A stretch of DNA of 64,000 nucleotides, taken from Gammaproteobacteria bacterium (GTDB taxonomy: Bacteria; Pseudomonadota; Gammaproteobacteria; HK1). Location of the stretch: assembly GCA_021773635.1 (NCBI GenBank), contig JAJFJV010000035.1:1-64000 (forward strand), written 5' to 3'. Below the pieces are notes generated by a model. That model worked only from the letters and a program-made list of their open reading frames with translations. It was not told the origin of the DNA and did no database searches. Made by a program: the position numbers and the translations under genes. Positions 4,465 through 37,942 of the stretch are shown here, piece by piece. Position 1 is the first letter of the stretch, and each line of letters starts with the position of its first letter.

Positions 4465-5433
4465 TTGTCAGCAAATAGTGCGCCTGCCGCGGCCTACGAT
4501 CTGTCCACTTTTCAGGGGCTGATTCTCGCGCTGCAAGACTTCTGGGCAAAGCAGGGCTGTGCCCTGCAGCAGCCCCTCGACATGGAGGTGGGTGCGGGCA
4601 CTTTCCATCCGGCCACCTTTCTCCGTGCCATTGGCCCGGAGCCCTGGTCTGCCGCTTATGTGCAGCCCTCGCGACGACCCACCGACGGACGCTACGGTGA
4701 AAATCCCAACCGTCTGCAGCACTACTATCAGTATCAGGTGGTCATTAAGCCGTCGCCGCTGAACATCCAGGAACTTTATCTGGAGTCACTTCAGGTTCTC
4801 GGTATCGATCCCCTGGAGCACGATATCCGCTTCGTGGAGGATAACTGGGAGTCGCCAACCCTGGGGGCCTGGGGGCTTGGCTGGGAGGTGTGGCTCAATG
4901 GCATGGAGATCACCCAGTTCACTTATTTCCAGCAGGTGGGTGGGCTCGAATGCCGGCCGGTGACTGCCGAGATCACCTATGGACTGGAACGTATCGCCAT
5001 GTATCTTCAGGAGGTGGACAGCCTGTTTGACCTCACCTGGACCGACGGTCCCCTCGGGCGAGTCAGCTATGGCGACATTTTCCTGCAAAACGAGGCGGAG
5101 ATGTCGGCCTACAATTTTGAGCACGCTGATGTATCCGCGCTGTTCGGCTGGTTTGACAATTGCGAAGCAGAGAGTGCACGCCTGATCGAACTGGACCTTC
5201 CGTTGCCGGCCTATGAAATGGTACTCAAGGCCTCCCATACCTTTAACTTGCTGGATGCGCGCCAGGCGCTGTCGGTCACGGAGCGCCAGCGTTACATCCT
5301 GCGGGTGCGCACCCTCTCCCGGGCGGTGGCCAAGGCTTATTTCCAGCGCCGCGAGGCGCTTGGCTTCCCCATGCTGGGTGCCGCTGGCGAGATGCTGGAT
5401 GAAGGGGCCGTGGTAGTGGAGGAGGTAGAGTGA
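4465..5433 (+). CDS. glyQ: Glycyl-tRNA synthetase, alpha subunit
   Basis: 322 residues. Class II aminoacyl-tRNA synthetase catalytic subunit of the bacterial alpha2beta2 enzyme; motifs include [20 protein letters not shown] and [22 protein letters not shown]-type motif 2 sequence. The only usable start is TTG at 4465, since the family begins a few residues before the [19 protein letters not shown] block and there is no ATG or GTG in frame there. The last bases overlap the glyS start (GTGA), so the subunits are translationally coupled. Confidence 0.96.
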
Positions 5434-32298: not shown

Positions 32299-33761
32299 GT
32301 CGCAAGGTCTCGAAGCGGGAATTCAAGGCGCAGGAACCCGGCCTGCATACGGATCTGCTGACTATCCAGCGCAAGCTGCGGGAGTCGGATATTCCGGTCA
32401 TCGTTATCGTGTCCGGTGTCGAGGGCGCAGGCAAGGGTGAGGTGGTCAATCGCCTGAACTACTGGCTGGATGCCCGCGGCATGCAGACCTTCGCCTACTG
32501 GGACGAAACCGACGAGGAGCGCCAGCGTCCCCGCTTCTGGCGCTTCTGGCGTTCCCTGCCCCCACGGGGAACCATCGGTGTCCTTTTTGGTTCCTGGTAC
32601 ACGCGGCCGATCATCGACCGCGCCCTCGGTAAAATCCGCGCTCCGGAATTTGGGCAGGAGCTCAATCGTATCGTCGAGTTCGAGCGTACGTTGAGCGAGG
32701 ACGGGGCGCTGATCGTCAAGTTCTGGTTTCACCTGTCCAAAGAGGCGCAGCAATCCAGGCTACGCAAGGACAGCAAGCAGGACAAGAAGAACTGGAATGT
32801 CTCTCCGTTGGCGAAAAAATTCGCCAAATCCTACAAACAGTTTTCCCGGGTTTCCGAACAGGCTATCCGGGAGACTGATATGGGCCACTCTCCCTGGCAC
32901 ATCATCGAGGCCGGAGACCGTCGCTACCGTGACCTGAGGGTGGGCACAATTCTGCTCAAGGCCCTGGAGGAGCGCCTCGGGGAGCAGGACGACATACAAA
33001 GCCACGAAGCCGGGCCGGAGCCCGCGCCGCCTCCCACCGCCCGCGCCGCACTCACGGTACTCGATCATCTGGATCTCAGCCCCAGCCTGAGTGACGAAAA
33101 ATATGACAAGCAGCTGTTGCGCTATCAGCGCCAGCTCAATGCGCTGAGCTGGAAGGCGCGGGAACAGAAGCGTTGCGTGGTGGCCATGTTTGAGGGCTGG
33201 GATGCCGGCGGCAAGGGAGGGGCCATACGCCGCATTACCGCCGCCATAGACGCCCGGCTTTATCGGGTTATTTCCGTGGCGGCCCCCACCGACGAGGAAA
33301 AGGCACAACACTACTTATGGCGCTTCTGGCGTCAGCTGCCGCGCTCCGGTTACATGACCATCTACGACCGTTCCTGGTACGGACGGGTGCTGGTGGAGCG
33401 CGTGGAGGGTTTCGCCAGCCACCATGAATGGTCGCGCGCCTACCAGGAGATCAACGACTTCGAGCAGCATCTCGCGGACCACGGCACCATCCTGCTCAAA
33501 TACTGGCTTCATATCAGTAAGGACGAACAGCTACGCCGCTTCAAGGAGCGCGAGAAGATCCCCTGGAAGGCGCACAAAATCACGGACGAAGACTGGCGCA
33601 ACCGCGAGAAATGGGATGCCTACGGCGAAGCGGTCAACGAAATGGTCGCCCACACCAGCACCGAATACGCGCCGTGGAACCTGATTCCGGGTAACGACAA
33701 GCGCTATGCGCGGGTGGAGGTGCTCAAGCGCCTGTGCAAGCGGTTGAAGGAAGCGCTTTAG
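32277..33761 (+). CDS. pap: Polyphosphate:AMP phosphotransferase, double PPK2 domain
   Basis: 494 residues with two PPK2 domains. Domain 1 has Walker A GVEGAGKGEV (about 47-56), a lid with RPRFWRFWRSLPPRG and FGSWYTRPI; domain 2 has FEGWDAGGKGGAI (about 304-316), YLWRFWRQLPRSGYMTIYDRSWYGRVLVERVEGF-type sequence, and DEDWRNREKWDAY. Two-domain PPK2 proteins transfer phosphate from polyphosphate to AMP, giving ADP. Domain 1 has Val-Glu in place of the usual Trp-Asp in the P-loop, so domain 2 is likely the main catalytic site. ATG with GAGGA upstream. Confidence 0.9.
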   Translation: MFEAAEVGRKVSKREFKAQEPGLHTDLLTIQRKLRESDIPVIVIVSGVEGAGKGEVVNRLNYWLDARGMQTFAYWDETDEERQRPRFWRFWRSLPPRGTIGVLFGSWYTRPIIDRALGKIRAPEFGQELNRIVEFERTLSEDGALIVKFWFHLSKEAQQSRLRKDSKQDKKNWNVSPLAKKFAKSYKQFSRVSEQAIRETDMGHSPWHIIEAGDRRYRDLRVGTILLKALEERLGEQDDIQSHEAGPEPAPPPTARAALTVLDHLDLSPSLSDEKYDKQLLRYQRQLNALSWKAREQKRCVVAMFEGWDAGGKGGAIRRITAAIDARLYRVISVAAPTDEEKAQHYLWRFWRQLPRSGYMTIYDRSWYGRVLVERVEGFASHHEWSRAYQEINDFEQHLADHGTILLKYWLHISKDEQLRRFKEREKIPWKAHKITDEDWRNREKWDAYGEAVNEMVAHTSTEYAPWNLIPGNDKRYARVEVLKRLCKRLKEAL

Positions 33762-34094
33762 GCAGGCAATGCATTAATCTGGTAGATGAAAGCGGGAGTC
33801 AGGGACCGATTCTCGTAACCATGTGGACGGCTACAGTGAAGTCCGGCTATTTCAATCGGATTATGTAGAAAAGATTCGACATAATCCGGGGGGTTAAATA
33901 ACGCCGATTACCGGAACGAAAAGGAGAATAAGGCTATAACATATTGATAAATATAAACGTATTGTCGTCATGAAGAAAAAAGAAAGATGTTGAGCGCGCA
34001 CATCGATCCGTTTATTACCGAATCGGTATTAATAATTAAACGAGAAAACTTTCCACATAAATCCTGTTAGATTCTTAGAGTAGAAAACGAAACT
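33762..34094. other. AT-rich gap of 333 bp upstream of the Shedu gene
   Basis: No coding frame. From about 33890 the sequence becomes clearly richer in A and T than the surroundings. It holds a long hairpin (33857-33888), a TACCGA-A-TCGGTA palindrome at 34016-34028, and GTTAGAT at 34066-34072, a match to the GTTRRRY recombination core of integron cassettes. No convincing promoter was found. Confidence 0.6.
33857..33888. repeat. Perfect-armed 32-bp hairpin
   Basis: CGGATTATGT at 33857-33866 is exactly complementary to ACATAATCCG at 33879-33888; inside, GAA and TTC also pair across an AAGA loop with one mismatch between. No T tract follows, so it is a poor terminator on the plus strand. It may mark the left border of the accessory islet or be a recombinase target. 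Confidence 0.7.
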
Positions 34095-35252
34095 ATGGAT
34101 GACGATTATCAGAACCCCCTGCCGGGGAAAACCTACATAAGCCCATCACTCCAAGCTTTTGGGGATAAGGAGCGAAGGGTTCGTATCGCTTCCAAAATAC
34201 TGCCCTCTGAAGATGGCTATGAATATGCAAAGGAACGCGACGAAGTAGTTTTAAGAAAGAAGCCAGATGCAAAGACGTATATAACAGCAAAGTTCCTCGA
34301 AGATACAAGGCAGACCTTTGTCTTAACTGTCCAAAAGTTTGTATCACAAACGGGGCAGCCGTATGGGTCTGGGTTTTCATTTGTAGGTGAAGAAATAGGT
34401 CGTTTCTGTGAATTTCTAGCAAATATCCAATCTGTTGATTTCAAGAATAGAGCCAAAGTAAATATTTCTGATGACGATCGGCGTAAAATAGTCTTAACTA
34501 TTCATCAGGCAAAAGCCTTCCTTTCAGATAATCAAGAATTGTTTTCAGAAGTCCTAAAATCGGAGGTAACTACTGAAGACCTTGTTGCTGTCGGTTTCCG
34601 AAAGAAACAATTGAGTGTCTATCACAGACTGTTAAATGACCAAAGTTATTTCGACGATTTAAAGAAAATGAAGAACTGCTCAAATGAGGATCTATGGCAA
34701 AAATACTTTGAAAAGAATCCCTGGGTATTTGGCTATGGTCTCGGTTATATATTCTTATCCAGCCTTGACGACAAAAAACTAGAGCAAGTAGTTCAGGGGT
34801 ATAGCGTAGATTCACATGGTAAGCGTGTTGATGCGCTTATGAAAACAAAGGGTATTATTTCTAACCTTTGTTTCGTTGAAATTAAGACTCACACGACAGC
34901 ACTATTAGAAGCTAAGCCTTATCGGTCTGGCTGCTGGGCTCCTTCAAAAAAATTGGCGGGCGCTATTGCGCAGGTCCAAGGCACAGTAGCCTCTGCCGTG
35001 GAAAATCTATCTATTAGAATTAACCCAAGCGATAGTGAAGGCAACCCGACTGGCGAAGAAATCTATAACTATCAACCTAAATCCTATTTGGTAATAGGGA
35101 GTATGGGTGAGTTTGTGTCAGAGCAAGGCGTAAACAAAGACAAGCTGAGGTCTTTTGAATTGCTTCGTAAAAATACCTCTAACCCTGAAATTATCACATT
35201 TGATGAACTTTATGAGCGAGCAAAATTCATTGTCCAGCACAATCAAAGCTGA
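34095..35252 (+). CDS. sduA: Shedu anti-phage defence nuclease (SduA)
   Basis: 385 residues. The C-terminal part is a DUF4263-type PD-(D/E)XK nuclease: WQKYFEKNPWVFG (about 201-213), KRVDALM (D246), FVEIKTH (E262, K264) and IAQVQG (Gln 293/295), the signature of Shedu proteins. The N-terminal 190 residues (TFVLTVQKFV, FVGEEIGRFCEFLANI) would be the regulatory or sensing part. Shedu is a one-gene defence system; related proteins form tetramers that cut DNA. The gene is AT-rich beside its neighbours, a sign of recent gain. The stop codon lies within the left arm of an attC-like site. Confidence 0.88.
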   Translation: MDDDYQNPLPGKTYISPSLQAFGDKERRVRIASKILPSEDGYEYAKERDEVVLRKKPDAKTYITAKFLEDTRQTFVLTVQKFVSQTGQPYGSGFSFVGEEIGRFCEFLANIQSVDFKNRAKVNISDDDRRKIVLTIHQAKAFLSDNQELFSEVLKSEVTTEDLVAVGFRKKQLSVYHRLLNDQSYFDDLKKMKNCSNEDLWQKYFEKNPWVFGYGLGYIFLSSLDDKKLEQVVQGYSVDSHGKRVDALMKTKGIISNLCFVEIKTHTTALLEAKPYRSGCWAPSKKLAGAIAQVQGTVASAVENLSIRINPSDSEGNPTGEEIYNYQPKSYLVIGSMGEFVSEQGVNKDKLRSFELLRKNTSNPEIITFDELYERAKFIVQHNQS

Positions 35253-35318
35253 CAAAGCGCTGCTGTCGGACAATTTTTCCGATTTTCTCCCAAATTGCCG
35301 CAGAGCGCGGCGTTAGCT
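35247..35318 (+). other. attC-like recombination site after the Shedu gene
   Basis: Outer arms AGCTGAC (35247-35253) and GTTAGCT (35312-35318) pair in 6 of 7 positions plus a G-T. Next come unpaired spacers AAA and GGC, then inner arms GCGCTGC (35257-35263) and GCAGAGCGC (35300-35308), which pair fully with a single unpaired A. The centre can pair further (CAATTT with AAATTG). This is the attC layout of outer arms, unpaired spacer, inner arms and an extrahelical base, with a plausible size of 72 bases. Against it: the third base of RRR in GTTRRRY is C, and the bulged base lies on the right arm, where attC sites usually carry it on the left. Confidence 0.45.
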
Positions 35319-35337
35319 GCTGAAAAATGAGGTGCAA

Positions 35338-35718
35338 ATGAAAGCGCTATTGGTCATCTTGTTGCTTTGTTTCGCAAATTTAGGATTCGCTCAGGAGTAT
35401 TCCTGCTCATCTTTTCTTGAAATAGAAAAGGATTTCAGCGAGAGATTGCCTATGAAGGTCGACGAGATAACCACTCTGGTTGAGTTCAGTGTTAACTGCG
35501 AAACAAAGATTGTTAAATACATTAAACATCTTTCGGTAGAGCGAAGTTCCCTTGCGTCAGGATTCCAGCAGAGGAAGCAAAGGCAATATCTGAATGTACA
35601 CTGTAACAAGCAGGGTCTGGCGTCGCACGGGTGGTCTTCTGCGGACTTTGTTTATGATCGAAATATGGGTCTCATGTTGGAGTTGAAAGCGACCCCGGCG
35701 TTGTGTGCTAGCCGTTAA
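35338..35718 (+). CDS. Small secreted protein of unknown function
   Basis: 126 residues from the ATG at 35338 with GAGG five bases upstream. A signal peptide is clear (LLVILLLCFANLGFAQ). The mature protein of about 108 residues has four cysteines (CSSF, NCET, HCNK, ALC), which could make two disulfides in the periplasm. No family was recognised. It starts 25 bases after the right end of the attC-like site, the usual spacing of a gene cassette start, but no second attC was found before malate synthase. Confidence 0.7.
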   Translation: MKALLVILLLCFANLGFAQEYSCSSFLEIEKDFSERLPMKVDEITTLVEFSVNCETKIVKYIKHLSVERSSLASGFQQRKQRQYLNVHCNKQGLASHGWSSADFVYDRNMGLMLELKATPALCASR

Positions 35719-35767
35719 TAACAGCTATTAGGGACAGGTCTTTCGTTGTGCATTCCCAACAGAAAAC

Positions 35768-37942
35768 CTACGTGAGTCGCTTCTTCGCCTCTCTCCTCCG
35801 GGCGTGCAGTAAAAACTCTGTATATCCATTGGGCTGTTCCCTCCCCTTGAATACCAGATCACAGGCGGCCTGGAAGGCGATGCTGTGGTCGAAGTTCGGG
35901 GCCATGTTGCGGTAATTCGGGTCGCCGGCGTTTTGCTTGTCTACCATGCCCGCCATGCGTTTCAGGGTGGTCATCACCTGTTCTTCGTCGCAGATGCCGT
36001 GATGCAACCAGTTGGCGATGTGCTGGCTGGAGATGCGCAGCGTGGCGCGGTCTTCCATCAGGCCGATGTCGTGGATGTCCGGCACCGTGGAACAACCCAC
36101 ACCCTGCTCGACCCAGCGCACCACGTAGCCGAGAATTCCCTGGGCATTGTTGTCCAGTTCCTGTTGGATATCCTCAGCGCCAAGTGGCGCGTTACCGAGC
36201 AATGGCAGGCGTAGCAAATCATCAATGCTGGCACGGGGGCGATTGGTAAGTTCTTGCTGACGGGCATCGACGTCGACGCGGTGATAGTGCATGGCATGCA
36301 GGGTGGCGGCAGTGGGTGAGGGCACCCAAGCGGTGTTGGCGCCGGCCAGCGGGTGGCCGATCTTCTCTTCCAACATCTGCGCCATTCTCGCCGGCATCGG
36401 CCACATGCCCTTGCCGATTTGCGCCTTGCCCCGGAGCCCGCAGGCGAGGCCCACATCCACGTTGGCGTCTTCGTAGGCACTAATCCAGGCTTCGTTCTTC
36501 ATCGCCGCCTTGCGCACCATGGCGCCCGCTTCCATGCTGGTGTGGATCTCATCGCCGGTGCGATCCAGAAAGCCGGTGTTGATGAAGACCACCCGCTCCC
36601 TGGCGGCGCGGATGCATGCCTTCAGGTTTAAAGTAGTGCGGCGTTCCTCGTCCATGATGCCGAGCTTGAGGGTGTGGCGCGGGAGACTGATACCATCTTC
36701 GATGCGGGCAAATAAATCATTGGTGAAGGTAACTTCTTCAGGGCCGTGCATCTTCGGCTTGACGATATAGATGCTGCCGGTCCGCGAATTATGCAGTTTT
36801 CCGCTGCCCTTGAGATCGTGCAGGGCGATGAGCGCGGTCATCATGCCATCGAGGATGCCCTCCGGGATTTCCTCGCCCTGAGCGTTCAGCACCGCGTCGG
36901 TCATCATATGGTGGCCGACATTGCGCAGGAACATCAGGCTGCGGCCCGGCAGGCTGAAGGCTGTGCCGTCCGGCGCGCTGTAGCCACGGTCCGGTTTCAG
37001 GCTGCGGGTGAGGGTTTTTCCGCCCTTGTCAAAGGTGGTGGTGAGATCGCCTTTCATCAGGCCGAGCCAGTTGCGGTAGACCAGTACCTTGTCCTCCGCG
37101 TCCACCGCTGAGACCGAGTCCTCGCAGTCCTGGATGGTGGTGATGGCGGACTCCAGGATCACGTCCTTCACGCCTGCCGGATGGCTCTTGCCAATCACAT
37201 GCTTGCGGTCGATCTGGATCTCGATATGCAGGCCGTGGTTTTTTAGCAGAATGCTTGTGGGTGCATCGGCCACGCCGGTATAGCCAATGAACTTTTCGGT
37301 TTCCACAAGCATGGTTTCCTCACCTTCTGCCAGTGCTGTGTGGAGGTGGCCATTTGCTACGCGGTAGGCCCTTACCTCGCCATAACTGGCACCGATGAGC
37401 GGAACTGCCTGATCCAATAAGGCAGTGGTGCAGGCCACTACCCGGGTGCCGCGCACCGGATTGTAGGCCGCAGTACGCTCTGCACCGTCCGACTCCGGGA
37501 TGGCATCGGTACCGTAGAGCGCGTCGTAGAGACTGCCCCAGCGGGCGTTGGCCGCATTCAGCGCGTAACGCGCAATGGTTACCGGCACCACCAGTTGCGG
37601 GCCGGCGATGCGATTAATCTCGGGATCGACTCCCGTGGTGGTGATATGGAAGTCATCACCCTCGGGCAACAGATAGCCAATTTCATACAGGAAATCCTTG
37701 TAGGCGGCGGTGTCGAAGGCATGCTCGCGGTGCGCCCGATGCCAGGCATCGATACGCGTTTGCAGTGCATCGCGTTTTTCCAGCAACGCCCGGTTACGCG
37801 GGGTGAGGTCGATGAGGATGGCTTCCAGTGCGGACCAGAAATCCGTGGCCGTAATACCGGTGCCCGGTGTGATCTCGTCGACGACCAGTTGGTAGAGTTC
37901 TGCGGCGATCTGCAGGCCGCCTGCATGAATACGTTCCGTCAT
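35768..37942 (-). CDS. glcB: Malate synthase G
   Basis: 724 residues, full length for the G isoform. It condenses glyoxylate with acetyl-CoA to give malate. Motifs: [35 protein letters not shown]-type region [38 protein letters not shown] (catalytic region) and [14 protein letters not shown]. It starts 15 bases after dctM ends, so it appears to be the last gene of the TRAP operon. No isocitrate lyase is in the window, which points to glyoxylate coming from another source. Confidence 0.95.

What the first reader, a model, noticed from the sequence alone, without database searches (positions are those of the whole stretch)
34060..35330. Shedu defence gene packaged like an integron gene cassette
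GTTAGAT (34066-34072) precedes the Shedu ATG by 22 bases, and the Shedu stop codon lies in the left arm of an attC-like foldback that ends in GTTAGCT. The implied cassette (about 34067-35312) would hold one promoterless gene and its attC. A second small secreted gene starts 25 bases beyond. No integrase gene is in the window, so this would be a cassette outside an integron or a remnant. Two details are off: GTTAGCT breaks the RRR rule and the bulged base is on the right arm.
Basis: partly seen in the sequence, partly recalled or inferred. Interest (0 to 1): 0.72.

Follow-up and report, generated by a model that had tools for sequence, protein, structure and literature searches.

The report
Shedu cassette in an integrase-less integron
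A phage-defence gene (Shedu) sits as a genuine integron cassette at one of several scattered copies of the integron's capture site, far from the single integrase gene that presumably serves them all; similar scattered capture sites turned up in 9 of 21 other integron-bearing bacteria tested, which may explain where many 'integrase-less' cassette clusters come from.

Summary
Window 34067-35312 is a one-gene integron cassette: Shedu (PF14082; PADLOC SduA) plus an attC. A covariance model trained on 10 other attC sites, the window's excluded, gives one hit in 64 kb, exactly 35247-35318 (E 2.5e-5).

The genome's only integron integrase is on another contig, beside the same ~230-bp sequence. Three congeneric genomes hold 17 copies (13 full length) but one full intI each. 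Identity is 91% in the last 20 bp and falls to background right after G|TT. Ten full-length copies lack an adjacent intI. At one intI-less locus shared by two species both flanks match, yet everything from G|TT on differs.

Of 21 other integron-bearing gammaproteobacterial genomes, 9 also have extra attI copies; all seven copies in the first five of these head attC arrays without intI. In one closed genome two cassettes are 100% identical between the intI array and a solo array.

Best reading: several attI platforms served in trans by one integrase. Trans activity is inferred, not shown. Nearest precedent found: one CALIN with its own attI in a Shewanella prophage.

The parts
33821..33836 (.). 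ATGTGGACGGCTACAG, one base off a LexA box CTGTN8ACAG; possible remnant of the promoter of a lost intI
   Evidence: Intact LexA boxes lie between intI and attI in L040, L142, L141 and L143. Position fits, but a 16-base near-match is weak evidence on its own.
33838..34066 (+). attI (integron attachment site); crossover between G34066 and T34067
   Evidence: Model R1: 170 bits, E 5e-50; the same sequence adjoins intI at G000:C9. R1 was built with this copy included; independent blastn E values to near-full-length sister copies are 1e-13 to 1e-41.
33857..33888 (.). inverted repeat CGGATTATGT...ACATAATCCG near the 5' end of attI, conserved in most copies; role unknown
   Evidence: alignment A1
34067..35312 (+). 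integron gene cassette, 1246 bp, one gene and one attC
   Evidence: left edge at the G|TT of attI; right edge at the G|TT of the attC
34095..35252 (+). Shedu (SduA) defence gene, 385 aa
   Evidence: Pfam PF14082 114 bits (cut-off 27); PADLOC SduA 573 bits
35247..35318 (+). attC: R'' AGCTGAC 35247-35253, R' GTTAGCT 35312-35318; stem with three unpaired bases, all on the left arm
   Evidence: R2 E 2.5e-5, only hit in 64 kb; fold; top hit of the two-arm scan
35313..35736 (+). remains of a second cassette starting TTAGCT, with the small gene 35338-35718 (looks secreted, no Pfam family); its attC was not found, so the right end is approximate
   Evidence: sequence; homology with G002 resumes at about 35737-35748

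Best explanation
The locus is a solo attI platform: an integron attachment site without its own integrase gene, holding a Shedu cassette. The genome has one integron integrase (IntI, on another contig), next to a homologous attI and a long cassette array. IntI most likely captures circular cassettes by recombining the folded bottom strand of their attC with any of the dispersed attI copies, cutting between G and TT, and so stocks several platforms in trans. Solo platforms descend at least partly from whole integrons that lost intI, because several keep intI pieces. Shown by sequence: attI identity, the junction at G|TT, the attC, one full intI per genome, and different cassette contents at an orthologous intI-less locus. 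Inferred: that IntI acts in trans on this copy, and that Shedu is expressed and protects the cell.
For: IntI: TIGR02249 452 bits, cut-off 265; one full copy in each of the three congeneric genomes. attI: 17 copies, 13 full length, three beside intI. Junction: pairwise identity 0.91 in the last 20 bp, 1.0 for TT, then 0.48, 0.33, 0.31 and 0.25. Cassettes: 24 forward against 2 reverse attC hits downstream of these attI copies; first-cassette start complementary to its own R'' at 7/7 positions in six loci. Turnover: G001 and G002 share the sdaA-attI region collinearly with no intI, largest gap 28 bp, then differ for 2.1 and 1.8 kb before the flank returns at 85-92% identity. Other genomes: seven solo attI copies in 5 of 9 genomes, every one followed by forward attC sites, with no intI hit; extra attI copies in 4 of 12 more. 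Two cassettes, 405 and 628 bp, are 100% identical between the intI array and a solo array of one closed genome, edges at cassette boundaries. intI remnants or intI-flank sequence at some solo copies. Shedu is absent from the two sister genomes.
Against: No experiment. The window's cassette start and R'' agree at only 5 of 7 positions and the next attC is missing, so this platform may be decaying. Three solo copies in the genus (L030, L031, L034) showed no attC downstream. No cassette of the focal genome was found identical in two arrays. No consensus sigma-70 promoter was found in attI.
Confidence: 0.8

Rival explanations
1. Fossil: a complete integron once stood here, lost intI, and the remaining attI and cassettes are frozen; nothing acts on them in trans.
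For: intI fragments beside some solo copies; degenerate LexA box, imperfect R''/R' pair and missing second attC in the window. Published CALINs are thought to be degraded integrons (PMC9024848).
Against: The last 22 bp of attI are intact. Cassette contents differ at an orthologous intI-less locus between species, and identical cassettes occur in an intI array and a solo array of one closed genome. These are other loci, so the window copy itself could still be a fossil.
Confidence: 0.15
2. Off-target insertion: IntI put the cassette into an ordinary genomic attG site.
For: attG insertion is established (Loot 2024, cited in PMC12444791); the G002 locus between the same two genes looks cassette-like without an attI.
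Against: attG sites are short and unrelated; here about 230 bp upstream are homologous to the intI-proximal attI.
Confidence: 0.02
3. The 230-bp repeat is an unrelated dispersed repeat (MITE-like) and the GTT edge is chance.
For: Dispersed, contains an inverted repeat, 5' edge fairly constant.
Against: Three copies lie exactly between intI and its array; similarity ends at G|TT in 14 copies; attC arrays follow most copies, in one direction.
Confidence: 0.01
4. attI moves as a unit of its own (without intI), and the solo copies are not decayed integrons. This concerns how the copies arose, not how they work, and is compatible with the best explanation.
For: In G096 and G098 the strongly similar part is only 58-67 bp; several copies in the genus share the same short upstream block.
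Against: Weaker similarity runs on towards the intI start by eye, and three platforms keep intI remnants or intI flank, which fits loss of intI.
Confidence: 0.2

Closest known systems
Sedentary chromosomal integron
   Same: intI, apparent LexA box, attI, cassettes with attC, crossover at G|TT
   Different: several attI platforms for one intI; the window's platform is remote from intI
CALIN / SALIN (attC sites lacking integrase)
   Same: cassette(s) without a neighbouring intI; one attC, so by count a SALIN
   Different: a full-length attI heads the array, which the definition does not include and which IntegronFinder does not look for outside class 1 (PMC9024848)
[quoted passage not shown]
   Same: integrase-less array headed by the same attI as the complete integron
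   Different: one case with a 28-bp attI inside a prophage; here many chromosomal platforms per genome and several genera
Delta-attI cassettes of mobile integrons (PMC12901181)
   Same: attI sequence away from its usual place
   Different: from the abstract, those are attI pieces that form part of cassettes of mobile integrons, not platforms heading remote arrays
Defence genes as integron cassettes (Vibrio and mobile integrons; Shedu reported among Xanthomonas cassettes, PMC12444791)
   Same: phage-defence gene carried as a cassette
   Different: another host and a solo attI; the cargo itself is not new

Membership tests
Integron gene cassette | single ORF with an attC at its 3' end | tested here: met
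Integron gene cassette | both edges at G|TT crossover points | tested here: met
   attI side; attC side
Integron gene cassette | cassette start (TTRRRY) complementary to its own R'' | tested here: inconclusive
   5 of 7 positions, against 7 of 7 in six sister loci
Integron gene cassette | excision and insertion by an integron integrase | not testable with these tools
   needs a recombination assay
Complete integron | intI adjacent to attI | tested here: not met
   no intI in the window; intI is on contig C9
Complete integron | attI at the head of the array | tested here: met
CALIN | at least two attC sites without a nearby intI | tested here: not met
   one attC only in the window; sister loci such as L037 and L039 qualify
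attG insertion | insertion point unrelated to attI or attC | tested here: not met
   full attI upstream
Integron integrase (IntI) | integron integrase family score over the curated cut-off | tested here: met
   TIGR02249 452 against 265 bits
Shedu (SduA) | SduA C-terminal (DUF4263) domain | tested here: met
   activity not tested

The most novel reading that the evidence does not exclude
Many 'integrase-less' cassette clusters in Gammaproteobacteria are working platforms: each has its own attI copy, and one IntI elsewhere in the genome loads and reshuffles them in trans, so an integron is often a distributed multi-platform system.
Probability: 0.6. Interest if true: 0.82.

Novelty: new variant of a known kind. 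Interest (0 to 1): 0.7.

Why it matters
CALINs are about as common as complete integrons (2961 against 2760 in PMC9024848), and their origin is put down to off-target insertion, loss of intI or rearrangement (PMC8618304). attI is not searched for outside class 1, so attI-headed arrays are counted as plain CALINs. If a genome's single IntI serves several attI platforms, each with its own first-position cassette and possibly its own promoter, the number of expressible first cassettes rises, and CALINs become part of the working system. It would also offer an explanation for CALINs at conserved loci, as in Xanthomonas (PMC12444791), which attG insertion does not predict.

Tried and rejected
Rfam search of the region: only a chance lncRNA match. 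First attC heuristics were too loose or too strict; replaced by a two-arm model trained without the window and by a covariance model. The exact 20-bp attI pattern in genome and viral collections found, besides the genus, a few single hits in other bacteria that I did not follow up; the viral hit is unrelated by eye. A clean empty site for the window locus: G002 has other DNA between the same genes, and G001 has a different gene order. The first text search for dispersed attI was useless (word-start 'atti' matched 'attitude'); repeated as whole words it found one paper on SGI1 that I did not read. Sigma-70 consensus scan of attI: nothing. G293 extra hits look like attC or cassette DNA, not attI, and were not counted. 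G143's weak extra hit was not counted either. An identical cassette shared between platforms in the focal genus was not found; G002 has a homologous pair at 78%.

Full report
What is there. The window is G000:C29:1-64000 of a 2.55-Mb draft genome. Its two closest genomes in the tool, G001 and G002, match the contig lengths of the uncultured gammaproteobacterial MAGs OFTM67 and OFTM50. Between a polyphosphate-kinase-like gene (ends 33761) and a malate synthase gene (35768-37942, minus strand; both named from the sequence, not tested) lie a Shedu gene and a small gene for a secreted-looking protein. Shedu is confirmed by Pfam (PF14082, 114 bits) and PADLOC (573 bits). Of 321 genomes sampled from the class (G000 among them), only one other had a homologue at E <= 1e-40 (39% identity), and neither sister genome had one.

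The attC. I trained a two-arm score on 12 attC sites of the genus, leaving the window out; 35247-35318 is the best of all candidates on both strands of the 64 kb, though at 31.1 it is at the low end of genuine sites (30-53) and a chance candidate scored 29.6. A covariance model from 10 short attC sites (window excluded, 12 pairs) is cleaner: one hit in the whole window, 35247-35318, E 2.5e-5; calibration of that model was short, so the E-value is rough. With the same model all 22 hits in 17 other loci lie on the cassette strand. The DNA fold puts the three unpaired stem bases on the left arm.

The attI. A DNA search with 33700-35900 showed that 33845-34070 recurs in the three genomes of the genus, including directly upstream of an integron integrase. 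The alignment of the copies is sharply conserved up to TTTCCACATAAATCCTG and then different at every locus after G|TT. Measured over 14 copies, mean pairwise identity is 0.91 in the last 20 bp, 1.0 for TT, 0.48 for the next four bases and 0.25-0.33 beyond. The model search finds 17 significant copies: 4 in G000, 4 in G001, 9 in G002, of which 13 are full length; none in the 14 other genomes of the family. Each of the three genomes has exactly one full IntI, beside one attI, so ten full-length copies are without an adjacent intact intI. intI fragments or intI-flanking sequence remain at L039, L032 and L041. A LexA box CTGTN8ACAG lies between intI and attI in G002 (L040) and in three unrelated genomes; the window keeps a version with one change.

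Cassettes. Downstream of these attI copies the scan finds 24 attC on the forward strand and 2 on the reverse; upstream, 1 on either strand. In six loci the first cassette's start is exactly complementary to its own R''; in the window 5 of 7. The window therefore has one complete cassette and the remains of a second.

Do solo platforms still exchange cassettes? At the sdaA locus of G001 and G002 the region from sdaA to attI is collinear in both, with no intI and no gap over 28 bp, so the absence of intI is most simply ancestral. From the crossover on the two have nothing substantial in common for 2.1 and 1.8 kb, after which the flank is again 85-92% identical. G001's array there shows no recognisable attC, so part of this difference may be decay or other insertion. 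The strongest case is in another genome: in the single-contig G098, two cassettes that are neighbours in the intI array (405 and 628 bp) are found 100% identical, separated by another cassette, in a solo-attI array, with ends at cassette boundaries.

How general? Of 321 gammaproteobacterial genomes sampled, 119 have IntI. I took the attI regions of 9 and then 12 of the genomes with the best IntI matches (not a random sample) and searched each genome for further copies. Five of the first nine have extra copies (seven loci); all seven are followed by attC sites in the forward orientation, with no IntI hit nearby. In the second set, G184, G037, G324 and G084 have extra copies, but four of the five copies I looked at lie at contig ends, where arrays could not be seen; the G324 copy has attC downstream. 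Total 9 of 21.

Mechanism. IntI normally recombines the folded bottom strand of attC with double-stranded attI (established knowledge). Nothing in that reaction requires intI to be linked to attI, and laboratory assays supply intI, attI and attC on separate molecules (PMC9892861). I therefore think the single IntI loads all attI copies in trans. How the attI copies spread is open: loss of intI from duplicated integrons is supported by the remnants; independent spread of attI is not excluded.

Known or new. Cassettes carrying defence genes are known, Shedu included (PMC12444791). CALINs are said to be mobilisable in trans (same paper). One CALIN with its own attI has been noted in a Shewanella prophage (PMC9892861). 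In the searched library I found no description of several attI platforms per genome as a recurrent arrangement; subscription papers are largely missing, so this is not proof of novelty. I rate it a new variant of the integron, with a known kind of cargo.

Noticed in passing
L134-L140 (G137, G096, G098, G142, G180): Solo attI copies heading attC arrays without intI in five unrelated gammaproteobacterial genomes, three of them single-contig assemblies.
   Followed up: partly
L137 and L142 (cassette-oriented coordinates: 4879-5283 and 5873-6500 in L137; 3425-3829 and 3824-4451 in L142): Two cassettes 100% identical between a solo-attI array and the intI array of the same closed genome (G098).
   Followed up: yes
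L037 6233-6694 and L042 3872-4333 (G002): Homologous cassettes (about 78% DNA identity) at two different attI platforms of one genome.
   Followed up: partly
window 35601-35706: Weak attC-like candidate (score 28.4) overlapping the end of the second small gene; not found by the covariance model.
   Followed up: partly
L038 3950-4510 (G002): Between the same two genes as in the window G002 has a broken carboxymuconolactone-decarboxylase-like gene starting after GTTAGCT and ending near GGCTAACAAGG, cassette-like but without attI; similar stretches of about 40 bp flank it.
   Followed up: partly
L034, L042, L037, L043, L036, L045, upstream of attI: Six attI copies share an upstream block reading ATGAGCGGTTCA... 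(reverse strand) that may be a truncated intI start (MSGSFRETV) or another short gene.
   Followed up: partly
L134 5547-8115 and L141 7585-5017 (cassette-oriented coordinates): A 2.57-kb segment 99.96% identical in inverted orientation near both the solo and the intI-proximal platform of G137; could be an insertion element.
   Followed up: no
L035 (G001:C4:189307) and L045 (G002:C11): Partial attI copies with only the 5' part; in L035 it is followed by ...AAATCCTGTTAGG, as if internally deleted.
   Followed up: no
G000:C36 (L003): A 290-aa tyrosine recombinase with partial similarity to IntI (99 bits, below cut-off) on a 3.4-kb contig.
   Followed up: no
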